Assembly: GCA_015063285.1 (NCBI GenBank)
Contig: SUST01000014.1
Coordinates: 1-33,059, forward strand
Direction: 5' to 3'
Length of the DNA: 33,059 nt
DNA from: Thermoplasmata archaeon
GTDB lineage: Archaea > Thermoplasmatota > Thermoplasmata > Methanomassiliicoccales > Methanomethylophilaceae
In this document: in pieces, positions 1,087-9,995 of the stretch
Layout: every line of letters begins with the position of its first letter
Position numbering within the stretch: the stretch's first letter is position 1
The notes under the pieces: model-generated
What the model was told of the DNA's origin: nothing
The model's database searches: none
Seen by the model: the letters and a program-made list of their open reading frames with translations, nothing else
Position numbers and translations under genes: made by a program

Positions 1087-1869
1087 TCACTTGCTCTCAC
1101 GTTTGAGCACCGCAGTGCCGTCGTTCGATGTAAGGGATTCGATGGCCGTGTTGCTAACGGTCTTCATGATGTCCTCTGCCTCTTTGTAATCGGCAGCTGT
1201 GACGAGGATCCTGTATCTGGGGCATCCCACACAGGTGATCTCCACTGAGGATCCGTCGGCGGCTGCGAGGCCGGCCATGAGTGCGGTCTTGATGAGCTCC
1301 ATTCCGTCAGGTGCTGAAGAGCTCATCTCGAGGATTCCGTCGATCTGCACCATGGGTGCTGCGACGTTCTCCTTCGCGACTTCCATAAAAGTATCGGTCC
1401 ACTTCCCCTTGAATTCCGAAAGGAAATCATCGGGGTAAGCGACCGCTGATTCGAAGGCACTGTACAGTGTCTCGTAGGCATCCAGGAGTTCGTCCCCGAA
1501 CTGCTTGTATGCCTTGTCTATGTCAATTCCCATCCTTTCAGCGACGATCTCGAGAAGTTTCTCTGCCTTCTTCTCGTTCTTCCATTGCTGGATCTTCTCG
1601 CGCTTCTGGTGTTCGTTGACGGATTTTAAAGAAAGGTCGATGTGACCTTTGGTTGAATCCACGCCCAGAACTTTGCAGACGATTTTTTGTCCTTCTCTGA
1701 CGAAGTCCCTGATGTACTTAACCCAGCCAGTGGCGACATCCCTTACGTGAATGAATCCTTCCTTGTCATCGTACTCGTCCAGAGTGACGAATGCTCCGAA
1801 GTTCTTCACGCTCTTGACGGTGCAGACTACGAGCTCACCGTTCTCGGGAAGTCCCCTGACCCTTGACAT
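1087..1869 (-). CDS. eif2a: Translation initiation factor aIF2 subunit alpha
   Basis: A 260-residue protein of the usual family length. Residues about 10-85 form the S1/OB RNA-binding domain (GELVVCTVKSVKNFGAFVTL, then GFIHVRDVA and KVLGVD). A helical middle domain follows, then an alpha/beta C-terminal domain that in the heterotrimer contacts the gamma subunit. aIF2 delivers initiator Met-tRNA to the small ribosomal subunit. The ATG shares one base with the TGA of rps27e and the stop is one base from nop10, so the four small genes are translated from one message. I saw nothing unusual. Confidence 0.96.
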   Translation of the reverse strand: MSRVRGLPENGELVVCTVKSVKNFGAFVTLDEYDDKEGFIHVRDVATGWVKYIRDFVREGQKIVCKVLGVDSTKGHIDLSLKSVNEHQKREKIQQWKNEKKAEKLLEIVAERMGIDIDKAYKQFGDELLDAYETLYSAFESAVAYPDDFLSEFKGKWTDTFMEVAKENVAAPMVQIDGILEMSSSAPDGMELIKTALMAGLAAADGSSVEITCVGCPRYRILVTAADYKEAEDIMKTVSNTAIESLTSNDGTAVLKRESK

Positions 1870-3200: not shown

Positions 3201-3869
3201 ATGAGGCTAGCATCCCTGTATTCCGGCGGAAAGGACTCCACTTTCTCGCTGTACATCATGGAGCAGATGGGACACGACGTACCTTACTTGGTCAATGTGA
3301 AGCCGGAGGACAAGGCATCATGGATCTTCCATACGCCGAACCTCTCGGTGGTCCCTCTCATGGCCGAGTCCATGGGAAAGGAACTTGTCACGGCTCCGAG
3401 CACCGGTACCGAGGAGGGGGACATGGAAGGGCTCAGGAAGGCATTGGAGGGATTGGATGTCGAAGGTGTCATAACCGGTGCCGTCTGGTCCGATTACCAA
3501 TGGGACAGGATGAACCTGGTCTGCAACGATCTCGGCCTCAAGGTGTTCTCCCCTCTGTGGAGGAAGGATCAGGACCTTCTGATGGATGCGTTCCTCCAGT
3601 CGGGCATCAGGGCGATAATCGTGGGATGCTTTGCAGAAGGCCTCGGCGAGGAATGGCTGGGACGCGAGATCGATGCGGATGCCGTTAAGGATCTGAAGAA
3701 GCTCCGTGAGAAGTACGGCATCAGCATCATGGGCGAGGGAGGGGAATACGAGTCGATGACCCTCGATTCCCCTATGCATTCCCACCCTCTGGAGATAGTA
3801 GATTCCAATAAGGTTTGGAAGAGGGACAACGGGACCCTTGACGTCACATCGGCCAGATTAGTTCAGTGA
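3201..3869 (+). CDS. dph6: Diphthine--ammonia ligase (Dph6, ATP pyrophosphatase family)
   Basis: 222 residues with the N-terminal PP-loop [11 protein letters not shown], which binds ATP. The rest matches the archaeal Dph6/COG2102 family: [16 protein letters not shown] in the middle, then [29 protein letters not shown] and [15 protein letters not shown]. It carries out the last step in making diphthamide on elongation factor 2. A GTG two codons upstream (3195) is possible, but ATG at 3201 gives the family start [13 protein letters not shown]. The 3' end overlaps the convergent copA by 12 bases. Confidence 0.93.
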
Positions 3870-6062
3870 TTTGGGTTCGAACCTTCTCATCCTAAGTGCA
3901 TTCGATACGACAGAGATCGATGAGAGCGACATAGCTGCCGCCGCCAATATAGGCATCAGCATCACGAGATCGGTGTATCCGAAAAGGACAGGGAGTCCTG
4001 CGGCGATCGGTATGCAGACCGCATTGTACCCAAGTGCGAAGAACAGGTTCTGCTTGATGTTCTTGAGGGTGGCTCTTCCAATCTCGAGAGCGGCGGGGAC
4101 CGTCCTCAGGTCGTCGTTCATCATCACGATGTCGGCCGATTCGATCGCGATATCGGTCCCGGATCCCACTGCAAGACCGACATCGGCCTGCGTGAGTGCA
4201 GGGGCATCGTTGATGCCGTCGCCCGTCATGGCCACATGCTTCTGGCGGACCTGCAGCTTCTTGACAGTATCCAGTTTGTCCTGGGGTTTGGTCTCTGCTA
4301 TCACTTTGTCAATTCCAGCCTGTGCCGCTATGGTCTCTGCCGTCTCCTTACGGTCCCCAGTGACCATCATGACATCGACCCCCATGGATTTCAGCGAGGA
4401 TATCGCAGCCGGGCTCTCGTCCCTCATCGGGTCCGATACGACGATAGAGCCTGAGGGTACACCGTCGATGGCGACCAGGATTCCTGGGGCTTCATGGAAG
4501 GATATCCCGTTCTCCTCCATGAGTGCGCGGTTCCCGACCAACACGGTCTGGCCATCCACATTGCAGCGTATCCCCTGTCCGGTTATCGCTTCGAAATCCG
4601 AATGAGGAGGCAGATTGATCCCATTTTCCTTAGCATAATTGACAACAGCCTCTGCCAGGGGGTGTTCCGAATCGGTTTCCGCGGCTGCGACGATGGATAT
4701 GAACTTCTTCTCATCAAGTCCAGTGATGATGCTGGTGATGGTAGGATGTCCTTTGGTGATCGTACCGGTTTTGTCCAGTATCACGGTGTCTATGTGTGCG
4801 GCAGCCTCTATGGAGGATGCTGTCTTGAATAATACCCCATGCTTCGAACCGTTGCCGGTACCTATGACGATCGCCAGAGGTGTGGCCAGCCCCAGTGCGC
4901 ATGGACAGGAGATCACGAGCACCGATATGGCGATGGTGACGCAGAACTCTAGGTCGTATCCGCTGTCAGGGAAGAACTGTCCTGCGACGAACCACGCGAT
5001 ACCTGATGCGATGGCGATCAGTATGACTGCAGGCACGAATTTGGCTGCAATCTTATCAGCGAGATGAGCGACAGGTGCCTTCGTTCCCTGGGCCATCTCG
5101 ATCATCCTAGCAATCTGGTAGAGGACAGTCTCTTCGCCGGTCTTCTCGATCCTGACTTTGAGGCTTCCGTTACCGTTGACCGTAGCGCCGTACACGACCG
5201 AATCTACATTCTTCGAGACGGGTATGGATTCCCCGGTGAGCATTGACTCGTTGACGGCCGAGCTCCCTTCTATGACCATCCCATCCGCAGGTATGGATTC
5301 CCCCGGACGGATCAATACGACGTCCCCGACGATCAATGATGACGCATCGACCTCATACTCCTTGCCGTCCACTATGATCGTAGCCTTGCTGGGGGCCAGG
5401 GATAGCAGCTTCCTGAGGGAATCGTTGGTGTTGTGCTTCGAACGGGCTTCCATGTATTTCCCGACGCTCACAAGTGCGATGATCATTCCTGCGGAGTCGA
5501 AGCTCAGCATTATGTGCATGTGCTCGTCAGTAGAGAAAGCGAGCATGGTGTAATAGAGTCCCATGGCAAGGGAAGCCAGGGTGCTGATGGAGACCAGTGA
5601 GTCCATGGTGGGGCTCTTGGTCTTCAGTGCAGGGATGCCCTTCTTGTAGAAGCGTCTTCCCGAGTACATTATCGGTAAGAACAGAACGAGCTGTATGATA
5701 CAATCCGTTCTGGTATCCCAGGGCATATCCAGGCCCAGCATCGGTCCCATGGCTATGATGCTGAGCGGGATAGCGAACAATATGGCGACTATCAGGTCCC
5801 GCTTCTGTATCTTGAGGGCTTCCAGTTCCTGCTGTTCGGCCTTCTCGCGGTCATCGCTGATCATCTGGTATCCGGCGGAGGTGACAGCCCTGCCGATCAT
5901 CTCCTCCGTGACCTTCGATTCGTCATAGGTGACCGTGGCGGTGTTGTTTCCGAAATTGGCCACGACGCTCTCGATGCCGTCGATCTCTCCGATCGCTCCC
6001 TCGATCCTGCTGGAGCAGGCGGCGCATGTCATTCCGCCTATGCGAAAAACGTGCGTCTTCAT
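3858..6062 (-). CDS. copA: Copper-exporting P1B-type ATPase
   Basis: 734 residues. One N-terminal heavy-metal domain (GMTCAAC at 10-16) is followed by eight predicted membrane segments. Visible motifs are TGES 276-279 (actuator), CPC 386-388 (transmembrane metal site), DKTGT 430-434 (phosphorylated Asp), SEHPLAEA 465-472, and TGDGIND 613-619. The YN near 679 and MSLSS at 711-715 with CPC define the Cu(I) subclass (P1B-1). It pumps Cu(I) out of the cytoplasm. Its ATG overlaps the copZ stop by 4 bases, so it is translationally coupled to the chaperone that would hand it copper. No copper-responsive repressor gene lies next to it. Confidence 0.95.
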
Positions 6063-6277
6063 GAGAAGAGTCCGTGCTTCACAGATGCTCTGAACCCGGC
6101 ATCGACGACGGCCGAGATCAGTTCCTCGTCGGTGGCCCCGTCGTGTTCGACGACGGCCTTACCCGACTTGAGGTTCACATCGACCTTCTTCACCTTGCCC
6201 AGAGCGTTCAGCTTCTCGTTGACCTTGCTAACGCATCCTTCGCACATCATGCCTTCGATTTTCAATGTCGTCTTCAT
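6059..6277 (-). CDS. copZ: CopZ-like copper chaperone (HMA domain)
   Basis: 72 residues forming one complete heavy-metal-associated domain. The metal-binding loop is GMMCEGC at 9-15 (C12, C15), then the standard beta-alpha-beta repeat ending in AGF. It would carry Cu(I) to CopA, which follows with a 4-base ATGA overlap. It starts one base after the helicase-nuclease stop, so all three genes probably share a transcript. The loop has MMC rather than MTC, a common variant. Confidence 0.93.
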
Positions 6278-6278
6278 C

Positions 6279-9200
6279 TCAAACCCTCTCTATTGCATCA
6301 ATTATTCCCGCGATCTCCTTGTCGGGATTCTTCCAGAATCCGGGCGTCCAGACCCTGTGGATTTTCCATCCTCTGGACTCTAGGTACTTCTGCCTGTGGT
6401 AGTCCCTCTCCCTCGTCGATTCGGAGATCTCGTAAAGACGGCTGTCGCATTCTATTCCCAGGATGTAACGGTCGTTCTGTTTCACTGCAAGGTCTATCTG
6501 GTATCCTCCGATACCGACGTTCCTCTCCACGGAGTAACCCTTCCTGAGGAGGGCGTTGTAGACCTTGTCGGCTATGTGGCCTGAATTGAATTCCTCTGTG
6601 CGTACCCAGCGGTCGTCACCGAACGAGTGCAGGATGGAATCGGCCAGATCCCTGTTCCCGCTGCTGATAGCATCGGCGTACTGCAGGTATTTCTTCAGTA
6701 TGCGGGGGCCGTCGTTCTTGTTGTCCTCCACCTGGAGTTCCCTGGGTTCGAATGAGGATACGATGTAGATCTTCTTCTTCGCCCTGGATACGGCGACGTT
6801 AAGACGGTTCTCACCACCGCGGTTGTTCAGCCATCCGAATCTCTGCATCAGCCTTCCGTCAGAGTTCTTGGCGTATCCTATGGAGAACACGATGACATCA
6901 CGCTCATCTCCCTGAACGCTCTCGATGTTCTTGATGAACAGACCGACATCCTCTCCGTTGTCGAACCTCTTCATCTCGTTGGCGACGAGCTTTCCGAACT
7001 CCCCGTCCTTGGCGCATTCCTCATCCAGGACATCGTTGATCAGGTCCCTCTGGGATGCGTTGAATGTGATGATACCTATGGTCTCGTTGTTCTTCCTGGA
7101 GGTGAATATGCCCCTGAGGAGTTCGATGACCTTCTTGGCCTCGGCCATGTTGGACTTGTTCTCCCACAGTCCGTCCACCTTGATGGTCTCGATGGGCGGT
7201 TTGGGCGGGTCTATCACATTGGGGGACACATATAGGCGTCCTCCGTAGAACGCGTAGTTGGAGAACGCTATGAGCTCCTCGTACTTCGACCTGTAGTGGA
7301 AGTTCAGCAGGATGGAGTCATACCTTGCCCTTGCCAGGTCCAGCAGTGACTCCTCCTCCAGTGCGGCGGATACGTCGTCGTCGAGGTCCTCCTCATCGGA
7401 ATCGTACTCGATCCTTCCGACTCCCAGGCTGGAGGGACGAAGCTGCTTGTGATCCCCTGCGACGACGACCTTCTTCGCACGGTAGATCGACGGGATACCC
7501 TTCTCCACATACATCTGGGAGGCCTCGTCGAATATGAGCAGGTCGAATACTCCCATCTCCAGCGGGAGTATCTCGGAAACCACCTCGGGGGTCAGCAGCC
7601 ATACGCGGACTCCCTGGAAGAGCTCGTACCCGTAGCGGTTGATGAACTTGTTCAGGTTCCATTTCCTCTTGGATTCGATGATCCTGTTGATGTCGCCGCG
7701 CCTCTTGGACTCGGAGATGTATCTCAGGTTGTTCTGGAGGATCTCCTCGACCTTGTCCTTGCACAGGATGCGCTTGTGCTCCATCTTCCTGTCCATGTCG
7801 CGGATGATGCTGTCGAAGTCCCAAATCTGCTGCATGATGTCCTTGTGCTCGGCATCGAACTTCATCAGATGCTCGTTGAGGATCCAGTTGAACATCCTGT
7901 CGTTGCTGTCCGAGAACTTCATCTTGGTGGATTCGGAGATCGACAGGATATCGTCCCCGTACAGCTTCTCGTCCGAGCTGAGCTTGGAATAGACGGTGGA
8001 CAGCGATGCGAACCTCTCGTAGTCGTCCAGGCCATCGATGATCTTCTTGGGGTCGTCCATCATCAGGGTGAGGGTGTGTTGGTTGTAGTTGTCGAAATAC
8101 TTCGAGGCCATCAGGGTGGTCTCCCTGTTGACCTTCCCTTTCGAGAACAGCCTTCCCATGAATCCCTTGGAGTTGAACTCCTTCATCTGCATCTCCAGGT
8201 CCATGAGGTCCGCCTTCATCTCACCGATGTTGAACTCTGAGAGGTTCATCTTCATCTGGGTGAGCCACGGGTTGGAGCCTGACAGCGTCTTGTAATCGTT
8301 GAAGTTCTTCATCAGGCTCTCGTTGTCGTACATCCTGTGGAGCTCGGATACCGTGGGGTACTGGAGCGCCAGGAGGCGCGGGTCTATGTGGGATTTGAGG
8401 ATCTTGTATTCGCTGAACTGGCGTTCATCGTTCAGATTGGTCTTCTCCATGCCGTACAGCTTGTAGGGTGCGATACCGAAGTCGCCCGGTGTATACATCA
8501 CATCGGCGATGCGGGTTAGCATCGAGACATCGTCGTCGATGCTGTCAGAGATGGTCTCCAGATCGGTACCCTTCTTGGGGGCTCCTGAGGCCAGCATGGT
8601 CTCTAGCTGCTTGTAGAACAGGTCCTTGTTTCCGACGTCGTCGATGAGAAGGCAGTATTTCGCCAGTGTCCCGAGACGGGAGTATACGACGTCCAGGGCG
8701 GTCTTCTTCTCGGAGACCATCAGGACGGTCTTTCCTTTCACGACCGCCGACGTTATCAGTCCTGTGATGACCTGTGATTTACCTGTCCCCGGAGGTCCCT
8801 GGACGACGATCTCGTCATCCCTGTCGATGGCAGTCAGGATGTTCTCCTGGGCGCTGTTGAGCGAGTTGATGTAGAACAGATCCTTCTCGGAGGCCTCCAT
8901 GCCCTTCTTCTTCAGGTCGTCCAGCGACAGGGGCTCCGGTTTGTCCGAGTAGAAATCGGTCTTGTCGAGGTTCTCCACAAGGTCTGTGAGGATACCGTTG
9001 ATCTCCTTTCCGGACAGGATGGCGTCGAAGTCCCTCTGGATAGAACTGGAGTACGTCGGGAACTTACCGACGATGATGTTCGGTACGAGTTCCATGTCCC
9101 CGGGAAGATAGTCGGGGAACTCCCCTGCCCTGTACTCGATGAATTCCATGGGCTCGGTGTTCTCGCATTTGATCTCGATTCCGTTCATGTGGAAGAAGTT

Positions 9201-9995
9201 GAGCGTGTTCTCGATGAACGATTCCTCTTCGAAGTCCTCCAGGATGTTGTTGGGGAGCGGCTTGTTCTGTCCCGTGGCCTTGATGTACGCCAGGATGAGG
9301 GTGTTGTTGTACATGGCATCGCGGGAGGAGTCATATGTGAGCGTTATGGAACGGGCATCCTTCTCAAGCGTCACCGGGAAGAGCGCCAGCGGTGCGCGGA
9401 TGTCGAAATCGTCGTTGGGCATCTTTCCCTGGACGTAGGGGTACCCTACATACAGGTCGTACTGTCCCTTGTCCCTCAGTTCCCTGTTGACCTCACGGAT
9501 CACCTGGTTCAGATGCCTGTAGACCTTCTCGTCCTCTTTGCTGTTGGTGATGTCGCAGAGCCTCAGTATCCTCTTGGTACCGAACAGCAGCCCGAGTATG
9601 TCCAGATCGGGGATCTTCATAAGATCGAAGGTGTTTTTGACGGAGATCCTTCCCTGATACAGGAGACGGTTCCCCCTGCTGATATTGATGAGCTTCTTTT
9701 CCAACTCTCTGAGGGTCTTTGCGGTCTCGCCCTCCAGATTGGAACCCTTGGCGGCGGTGACGGTATATTTCCTCGTAACTGCGAGGAAGCTCTCACCGTA
9801 TACCTCTATGAATCTCTGGCCGACACCCACGATGGCGATGAAGTCCTCGATCTTCGTAGGTTTGCGCTGGGCCATTTCCTGGAGCGCCTCATCGGAGCAG
9901 ACGTTGGGCACTCTTCCCGTGGCCCTTCTGCCCTCATCTCTGAGACGTTCCCTCAGTTGGTATAGTTCTTCGTAAAGCTGCTCTTCCAATCCCAT
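6279..9995 (-). CDS. HRDC-DUF4011-SF1 helicase with C-terminal Vsr-like nuclease (REase_MTES_1575)
   Basis: 1238 residues. Residues about 1-80 look like an HRDC domain (LYQLRERLRDEG, CSDEALQEMAQRKPT, IVGVGQRFIEVYGESFL). A DUF4011-like start follows at about 94-115 (LRELEKKLINISRGNRLLY). The superfamily 1 helicase core is split by a long helical insert: Walker A GPPGTGKS 400-407, Walker B DEAS 823-826, GDHKQLRPS 847-855, NFHYRSKYEEL 898-908, VQGDERDVIVFS 1027-1038, VAVSRAKK 1067-1074. Residues 1145-1225 match the Vsr-like nuclease fold (YQIDLAV, LGIECD, RERDYHRQKYLESRGWKIHRVW). Such proteins are associated with anti-phage defence (DUF4011-helicase-Vsr group). The protein looks intact. It is first in an operon with copZ and copA. 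The molecular target is unknown. Confidence 0.88.
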   Translation of the reverse strand: MGLEEQLYEELYQLRERLRDEGRRATGRVPNVCSDEALQEMAQRKPTKIEDFIAIVGVGQRFIEVYGESFLAVTRKYTVTAAKGSNLEGETAKTLRELEKKLINISRGNRLLYQGRISVKNTFDLMKIPDLDILGLLFGTKRILRLCDITNSKEDEKVYRHLNQVIREVNRELRDKGQYDLYVGYPYVQGKMPNDDFDIRAPLALFPVTLEKDARSITLTYDSSRDAMYNNTLILAYIKATGQNKPLPNNILEDFEEESFIENTLNFFHMNGIEIKCENTEPMEFIEYRAGEFPDYLPGDMELVPNIIVGKFPTYSSSIQRDFDAILSGKEINGILTDLVENLDKTDFYSDKPEPLSLDDLKKKGMEASEKDLFYINSLNSAQENILTAIDRDDEIVVQGPPGTGKSQVITGLITSAVVKGKTVLMVSEKKTALDVVYSRLGTLAKYCLLIDDVGNKDLFYKQLETMLASGAPKKGTDLETISDSIDDDVSMLTRIADVMYTPGDFGIAPYKLYGMEKTNLNDERQFSEYKILKSHIDPRLLALQYPTVSELHRMYDNESLMKNFNDYKTLSGSNPWLTQMKMNLSEFNIGEMKADLMDLEMQMKEFNSKGFMGRLFSKGKVNRETTLMASKYFDNYNQHTLTLMMDDPKKIIDGLDDYERFASLSTVYSKLSSDEKLYGDDILSISESTKMKFSDSNDRMFNWILNEHLMKFDAEHKDIMQQIWDFDSIIRDMDRKMEHKRILCKDKVEEILQNNLRYISESKRRGDINRIIESKRKWNLNKFINRYGYELFQGVRVWLLTPEVVSEILPLEMGVFDLLIFDEASQMYVEKGIPSIYRAKKVVVAGDHKQLRPSSLGVGRIEYDSDEEDLDDDVSAALEEESLLDLARARYDSILLNFHYRSKYEELIAFSNYAFYGGRLYVSPNVIDPPKPPIETIKVDGLWENKSNMAEAKKVIELLRGIFTSRKNNETIGIITFNASQRDLINDVLDEECAKDGEFGKLVANEMKRFDNGEDVGLFIKNIESVQGDERDVIVFSIGYAKNSDGRLMQRFGWLNNRGGENRLNVAVSRAKKKIYIVSSFEPRELQVEDNKNDGPRILKKYLQYADAISSGNRDLADSILHSFGDDRWVRTEEFNSGHIADKVYNALLRKGYSVERNVGIGGYQIDLAVKQNDRYILGIECDSRLYEISESTRERDYHRQKYLESRGWKIHRVWTPGFWKNPDKEIAGIIDAIERV

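What the first reader, a model, noticed from the sequence alone, without database searches (positions are those of the whole stretch)
6279..9995. HRDC domain fused to a DUF4011-type helicase and a Vsr-like nuclease
The sequence shows an HRDC-like segment at residues 1-80 ahead of the DUF4011 / SF1 helicase / MTES_1575-type nuclease chain. Proteins with the last three parts are linked to anti-phage defence. HRDC is normally a C-terminal module of RecQ and RNase D; at the N-terminus here it would give a new DNA-junction or RNA recognition end to a defence nuclease. All motor motifs and nuclease core residues (D in YQID, E and D in GIECD) seem intact.
Basis: partly seen in the sequence, partly recalled or inferred. 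Interest (0 to 1): 0.6.

Follow-up and report, generated by a model that had tools for sequence, protein, structure and literature searches.

The report
HRDC-tipped archaeal helicase-nuclease, chromosomally resident
A large helicase-nuclease in a family of gut methanogens really does carry, at its front end, a small DNA-gripping domain normally found at the back of RecQ repair helicases; the gene is inherited like a housekeeping gene at one fixed place in the chromosome, which makes a mobile anti-virus system an unlikely description of it.

Summary
The minus-strand ORF 6279-9995 (1238 aa) has an HRDC domain at residues 5-73 (Pfam E 3.7e-12; predicted fold superposes on E. coli RecQ HRDC, TM 0.88, 1.0 A). 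It continues with DUF4011, a UPF1/Dna2-type SF1 helicase and a MTES_1575 nuclease with D1168, E1182 and D1184 intact. The fusion is no one-off: all 84 HRDC hits in the 147 genomes searched of its order lie at the N-terminus of this protein, in 79 genomes, all from one family (39 of its 45 near-complete genomes). RecQ passes its cut-off in only 1 of the 147. The defence reading is weaker. The protein falls far below the curated cut-offs of its anti-phage relatives (Hhe 384 of 2000 bits; ProA 536 of 1500). It sits between tyrS and the L44e-S27e-eIF2a cluster, within 17 kb of eIF2a in 46 of 46 same-contig cases, and mostly follows vertical descent under purifying selection. Best reading: a resident DNA-processing helicase-nuclease in which a flexibly tethered HRDC steers or throttles the motor. 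Genome maintenance or built-in defence remains open. Complications: a subclade with a 43%-identical version at the same locus, extra unlinked copies, and several genera without the gene.

The parts
6279..9995 (-). HRDC-DUF4011-SF1 helicase-MTES_1575 nuclease gene, 1238 aa
   Evidence: ORF; Pfam; dN/dS 0.05-0.16 between close orthologs
9777..9983 (-). HRDC domain, residues 5-73
   Evidence: Pfam E 3.7e-12; PDB phmmer 1wud 8.4e-6; Foldseek 1wud TM 0.88 rmsd 1.0; 42/42 family members
9729..9758 (-). low-confidence, probably flexible linker, residues 80-89, between HRDC and the rest
   Evidence: pLDDT below 50 at 80-89 in the AlphaFold2 model
9297..9554 (-). DUF4011 domain match, residues 148-233
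   Evidence: Pfam E 1.2e-9
8667..8861 (-). RecA-like domain 1 (AAA_11), residues 379-443; Walker A GPPGTGKS at 400-407
   Evidence: Pfam; Walker A invariant in all 57 family sequences
7518..7529 (-). motif II DEAS, residues 823-826
   Evidence: D823/E824 invariant in 61 of 61
6753..7346 (-). RecA-like domain 2 (AAA_12), residues 884-1081, with motifs IV-VI
   Evidence: Pfam E 7.8e-22; VQGDERD and RLNVA motifs
6291..6569 (-). MTES_1575 (Vsr-like) nuclease, residues 1143-1235
   Evidence: Pfam E 8.4e-29
6444..6494 (-). nuclease core residues D1168, E1182, D1184
   Evidence: alignment of 61 sequences
6059..6277 (-). HMA metal-binding gene directly downstream, same strand, start 1 nt after the helicase stop codon (neighbour, probably co-transcribed, not part of the machine)
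   Evidence: Pfam E 3e-14; junction sequence
3858..6062 (-). copper-type P-ATPase with HMA domain (neighbour)
   Evidence: Pfam; linked in most relatives, missing next to the gene in genus g9
1087..1869 (-). eIF2alpha gene used as syntenic and vertical yardstick (neighbour)
   Evidence: Pfam E 6.1e-26

Best explanation
The gene encodes a single-chain DNA-processing helicase-nuclease. An N-terminal HRDC module, of the RecQ type, hangs on a low-confidence and probably flexible linker in front of DUF4011 and a UPF1/Dna2-type SF1B motor, and a Vsr-like nuclease sits at the far end. Most likely the motor runs 5'->3' on single strands, the HRDC docks on ssDNA or a branched junction or on the motor itself and so sets substrate choice and speed, and the nuclease cuts what the motor delivers. 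It acts as a resident chromosomal function (repair or clearing of aberrant DNA) rather than as a mobile defence cassette. Shown: the architecture, intact motifs, restriction of the fusion to one family and near-fixation there, synteny, purifying selection. Inferred: single origin, polarity, DNA (not RNA) as substrate, HRDC role, physiological role.
For: HRDC fold and all enzyme motifs. The motor matches UPF1, Sen1/senataxin, IGHMBP2, Aquarius and Dna2. HRDC present in 39 of 45 near-complete family genomes, always in this protein. Within 17 kb of eIF2alpha in 46 of 46 same-contig genomes, 43 downstream on the same strand, with gene order conserved across genera g1, g3, g7, g9 and g14. Its identity tracks eIF2alpha identity (Spearman 0.67 over 64 genomes; 0.90 once four outlier genomes are removed post hoc) and most genera form clades. 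dN/dS 0.05-0.16 overall and 0.03-0.15 in HRDC where measurable, between close orthologs. GC is like the window (0.545 vs 0.540). RecQ is over its cut-off in 1 of 147 and NurA in 2 of 147 genomes of the order, so these two parts are largely missing. In E. coli RecQ, HRDC slows ATPase, translocation and unwinding and may switch between ssDNA and the motor core (PMC4464074).
Against: Homologues with curated names are anti-phage (Hhe, ProA models). The gene is missing from genera g8, g10, g11 and most of g5, so it is dispensable, and those lineages lack RecQ and NurA too, so no replacement of either is shown. One subclade carries a 43%-identical version at the same locus although eIF2alpha is about 80% identical, and two of those lost a nuclease residue. 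Extra unlinked copies exist in G061, G093 and G094. Position among housekeeping genes does not prove a housekeeping role. The Tyr needed for ssDNA binding by E. coli RecQ HRDC (Y555, PMC4464074) has no obvious counterpart (read off the alignment from memory of the numbering, not tested separately). UPF1-like motors often act on RNA.
Confidence: 0.45

Rival explanations
1. A fixed, built-in anti-virus or anti-plasmid effector: a short Hhe/ProA-like single-gene defence protein whose HRDC recognises replication or recombination intermediates of invading DNA and which cuts them.
For: PADLOC PDC-S37 E 1.9e-156 and Hhe 1.6e-85; NCBIfam ProA 1.9e-160 and Hhe 1.6e-114; divergent version at the same locus in a subclade, and copies off the usual locus, one of them (G094, L099) beside a transposase gene; longer DUF4011-helicase-MTES_1575 proteins occur patchily in the same order, one beside a PDC-M12A/AbiLi-like ATPase and a transposase.
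Against: Hhe and ProA cut-offs not reached (384/2000, 536/1500); no DUF3320, 1238 vs about 1800-1900 aa; no defence gene among the neighbours scanned; near-core, syntenic, mostly vertical inheritance. In P. aeruginosa a DUF4011 gene is likewise a core gene present in every isolate that merely borders a defence hotspot (PMC10250203).
Confidence: 0.38
2. An RNA or R-loop helicase-nuclease: a UPF1/Sen1-like motor using HRDC as in RNase D for RNA recognition, with the nuclease acting on RNA-DNA hybrids or their DNA strand.
For: Closest solved motors are mostly RNA or RNA-DNA enzymes (Aquarius, senataxin, Sen1, UPF1, IGHMBP2); the E. coli RNase D structure is also a hit, though its superposition is poor; the gene lies beside a translation gene cluster.
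Against: The HRDC fits RecQ HRDC best by sequence and fold; MTES_1575/Vsr-like nucleases are expected to cut DNA (established knowledge); Dna2, a DNA enzyme, is also among the hits.
Confidence: 0.12
3. A copper-stress accessory: part of an operon with the HMA protein and copper P-ATPase, repairing metal-induced DNA damage.
For: Helicase stop and HMA start are 1 nt apart in the window; same-strand adjacency in most genera.
Against: Genus g9 keeps the helicase without the HMA/copper ATPase next to it, G001 likewise, and spacing grows to 0.6-1.5 kb in several g1 species.
Confidence: 0.05

Closest known systems
Hhe (DUF4011 domain-containing anti-phage protein; NCBIfam NF042953, PADLOC Hhe)
   Same: DUF4011, SF1 helicase and MTES_1575/Vsr-like nuclease in the same order in one chain
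   Different: Here about 1240 aa rather than about 1800-1900, an HRDC in front, no DUF3320, score 384 against cut-off 2000; syntenic near-core gene
Anti-phage protein ProA (NCBIfam NF058533) and PADLOC candidate PDC-S37
   Same: Best scoring named models, chiefly over the C-terminal motor and nuclease
   Different: Below the ProA cut-off (536 of 1500); model 1903 aa; best matched stretch excludes the HRDC; PDC-S37 is a candidate, not a demonstrated system
HRDC-less DUF4011-helicase-MTES_1575 proteins of other Methanomassiliicoccales (L064, L065, L067)
   Same: Same core and similar length in L064 (1254 aa); 42-45% identity over motor and nuclease
   Different: No HRDC; none of the window's neighbours found beside L064 and L065
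RecQ helicase HRDC domain (1wud, 2rhf)
   Same: Same domain fold
   Different: C-terminal on an SF2 helicase there; N-terminal on an SF1 helicase-nuclease here
Dna2 nuclease-helicase
   Same: UPF1-like SF1B motor with a nuclease in one chain (Foldseek E 2e-11)
   Different: Dna2 nuclease is RecB-like and N-terminal to the motor (established knowledge); here Vsr-like and C-terminal, plus HRDC
DpdF (HRDC-bearing part of the Dpd defence system; PADLOC)
   Same: HRDC segment matches at 8.2e-10
   Different: Match is to the last 72 residues of DpdF only; no Dpd gene among the neighbours scanned

Membership tests
HRDC domain (PF00570) | score above Pfam gathering cut-off 23.8 bits | tested here: met
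   46.5 bits; 42/42 family members matched
HRDC domain (PF00570) | compact helical bundle superposable on solved HRDC domains | tested here: met
   1wud TM 0.88, rmsd 1.0 A
HRDC domain (PF00570) | binding to ssDNA or junctions | not testable with these tools
   needs protein; affinity is known to vary between HRDC domains (PMC4464074)
MTES_1575 nuclease (PF18741) | score above cut-off and D..E.D core present | tested here: met
   99.9 bits vs 38.2; D1168, E1182, D1184
UPF1-like SF1 helicase | motifs I, II, III, V, VI and UPF1-like fold | tested here: met
Hhe anti-phage system | NCBIfam NF042953 curated cut-off 2000 bits | tested here: not met
   383.9 bits
Hhe anti-phage system | DUF3320 present (seen in many bacterial relatives; that it defines Hhe is from memory) | tested here: not met
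   absent at E up to 1; found in the long relative L090
Anti-phage protein ProA | NCBIfam NF058533 curated cut-off 1500 bits | tested here: not met
   536.2 bits
PADLOC PDC-S37 (candidate defence) | match to the profile over its length | tested here: inconclusive
   E 1.9e-156, best stretch 746-1237 on 866-1340 of 1550, two stretches; PADLOC's own coverage rule was not available
mobile defence system in general | patchy distribution and defence-island or mobile context | tested here: not met
   HRDC form in 39/45 near-complete family genomes, syntenic with eIF2alpha 46/46; unlinked extra copies are exceptions
RecQ helicase | SF2 RecQ motor | tested here: not met
   only the HRDC part of RecQ models matches, residues 3-77; motor is SF1

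The most novel reading that the evidence does not exclude
A family of gut methanogens lacking RecQ and NurA uses a vertically inherited HRDC-SF1B-Vsr-like chain as its own type of end-processing or junction-processing helicase-nuclease, so that the DUF4011 helicase-nuclease family, known from phage defence, also has resident genome-maintenance members.
Probability: 0.25. Interest if true: 0.7.

Novelty: new variant of a known kind. Interest (0 to 1): 0.42.

Why it matters
Defence-finding models would count this protein as a candidate defence gene, yet its inheritance is that of a chromosomal resident. It gives a clean test case for how often DUF4011 helicase-nucleases are housekeeping rather than immunity, and for what an HRDC domain does on a motor of a different superfamily. 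It also points at a concrete gap: RecQ and NurA models find almost nothing in this archaeal order.

Tried and rejected
Chance or start-site artefact for HRDC: rejected (42/42 relatives, fold match, conserved start). Recent insertion into the window: rejected (GC like neighbours, synteny across genera). Architecture elsewhere: among 72,556 plasmid records none aligned over HRDC and DUF4011 together, nor did any phage record or viral contig, nor any Thermoplasmatota genome searched outside the family; chromosomes of most bacteria could not be surveyed (the 'of' option needs a genome handle), and the one genome-contig scan used patterns that reach close relatives only. Rad50 zinc-hook search was uninformative (it rang in only 3 of 14 control genomes). 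Literature: no held paper combines DUF4011 with HRDC or with Vsr. The correlation with eIF2alpha was computed with and without four outliers; the exclusion was made after seeing the data.

Full report
What is there. The minus-strand ORF 6279-9995 encodes 1238 aa. Pfam places HRDC at 5-73 (E 3.7e-12), DUF4011 at 148-233, the two RecA-like halves at 379-443 and 884-1081, and MTES_1575 at 1143-1235 (E 8.4e-29), each above its cut-off. The HRDC is supported three more ways: phmmer against solved structures gives the HRDC of E. coli and Deinococcus RecQ; the AlphaFold2 model of residues 1-375 shows five helices at 3-82 followed by a low-confidence linker at 80-89; and Foldseek puts E. coli RecQ HRDC first with TM 0.88 and 1.0 A (the Foldseek E-values are weak, 0.03, probably because the domain is small within a longer query, but the probability is 1.00 and many other HRDC structures follow).

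Motor and nuclease. Residues K406, D823, E824, R1064 and R1071 are invariant in 61 of 61 sequences. D1168, E1182 and D1184 are intact in the window's protein; across the alignment D1168 is lost in G060 and in an outgroup, and E1182 in G061. The model of residues 96-1238 (pLDDT 86) matches UPF1-like SF1B enzymes: Aquarius, senataxin/Sen1, UPF1, IGHMBP2 and Dna2. A 5'->3' direction is therefore inferred from the family, not shown.

How special is the HRDC. Of 147 genomes searched of the order, 79 have a Pfam HRDC hit, all in the window's family (f1), and all 84 hits lie at the N-terminus of this protein (compared with the positions). The own genome has exactly one HRDC hit. In the wider phylum HRDC appears in 13 further genomes; the one read (G225, L114) looks like an ordinary RecQ with a C-terminal HRDC (judged by reading the sequence). 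Relatives in sister families carry the same helicase-nuclease core without HRDC. So the fusion is most simply a single gain at the base of the family. Which family this is was not told; record titles of near relatives say Methanomethylophilaceae or Methanomassiliicoccaceae.

Inheritance and place. Full-length or fragmentary orthologs occur in most genomes of the family; the HRDC form is in 39 of 45 near-complete ones, and is missing from the near-complete genomes of g8, g10, g11 and from G005. In 46 of 46 genomes where both lie on one contig, the gene is within 17 kb of eIF2alpha, in 43 downstream on the same strand. The order tyrS, TctA, thioesterase, helicase, HMA, copper ATPase, rpiA, L44e, S27e, eIF2alpha, PAC2 is largely kept in genera g1, g3, g7 and g14, and in g9 without the metal genes (the names thioesterase, rpiA, L44e and S27e are from reading the sequences). 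The L44e-S27e-eIF2alpha block is the archaeal 'LSIN' cluster, which in many archaea adjoins replication genes (PMC2643942); that link is literature context, not shown here. Where the helicase is missing, the rpiA-to-PAC2 genes remain together (L101-L104). The gene tree groups g6, g7, g9, g14 and most of g1 by genus. dN/dS is 0.05-0.16 between close orthologs, with HRDC itself at 0.03-0.15 where dS could be computed.

What does not fit simple vertical descent. Seven g1 genomes (G057, G060, G061, G067-G070) carry a version only about 43% identical at the same locus, though eIF2alpha in three of them is 80-82% identical. In the tree (which holds six of the seven) it groups with g2, outside g1, on long branches, which could be in-place replacement or fast evolution with branch attraction. 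G061, G093 and G094 have second copies elsewhere, and the g12 copies read are not at the eIF2alpha locus. These are features a defence gene would also show.

Defence or not. PADLOC matches PDC-S37 (1.9e-156) and Hhe; NCBIfam names ProA and Hhe, but the protein reaches 536 of 1500 and 384 of 2000 bits, and DUF3320 is absent. Of the neighbouring proteins scanned none looks like a defence gene; the one PADLOC hit is a 40-residue stretch of the 1026-aa redox protein to a desaturase-named model. Longer DUF4011-helicase-MTES_1575 proteins (about 1.9-2.2 thousand aa) occur patchily in the same order; one in G012 sits beside a transposase and a PDC-M12A/AbiLi-like ATPase. A published parallel: the large DUF4011 gene of P. 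aeruginosa is a core gene in every isolate that flanks a defence hotspot (PMC10250203). Hence membership in Hhe or ProA is not claimed, while a similar way of working remains possible.

Mechanism. In E. coli RecQ the HRDC lowers ATPase, translocation and unwinding rates irrespective of its ssDNA binding and is thought to switch between DNA and the motor core (PMC4464074). A flexible tether in front of DUF4011 would allow the same here. RecQ is over its cut-off in 1 of 147 and NurA in 2 of 147 genomes of the order, which makes a resident helicase-nuclease plausible, but lineages without this gene lack them too, so a replacement is not shown. I put resident DNA processing at 0.45, fixed defence at 0.38, RNA/R-loop work at 0.12, copper-linked repair at 0.05.

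Noticed in passing
L055 (G068), helicase gene, complement of about 4994-8659: One in-frame TAG splits the helicase ORF near query residue 745, in an order known to use TAG for pyrrolysine; could be a read-through codon, a pseudogene or an assembly error.
   Followed up: partly
window 6040-6300: Helicase, HMA protein and copper P-ATPase are packed head to tail (1 nt gap, then a 4-base overlap), suggesting co-transcription.
   Followed up: partly
order-wide (147 genomes): NurA (PF09376) passes its cut-off in only 2 genomes and RecQ (TIGR00614) in 1, so the order seems to lack both; the HerA side and Mre11/Rad50 were not resolved.
   Followed up: partly
L061 2625-4940 and 11467-13332: The second, unlinked HRDC-helicase copy of G061 is flanked by protein kinases with leucine-rich BspA-type repeats, one also with Sel1 repeats; they match PD-T4-6/MADS kinase models, probably through the kinase fold alone.
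   Followed up: partly
L119 (Spiroplasma citri plasmid CP047444.1): A plasmid-borne DUF4011 protein and an adjoining ORF match the motor at 41% identity and lie near an annotated NgoFVII-family restriction endonuclease, a defence-like setting.
   Followed up: no
L063 and L113 (G094 second copy, G092): In genus g12 HRDC-helicase copies lie next to a class II tRNA synthetase gene (ThrRS-like domains) in two genomes, hinting at a second recurrent site.
   Followed up: partly
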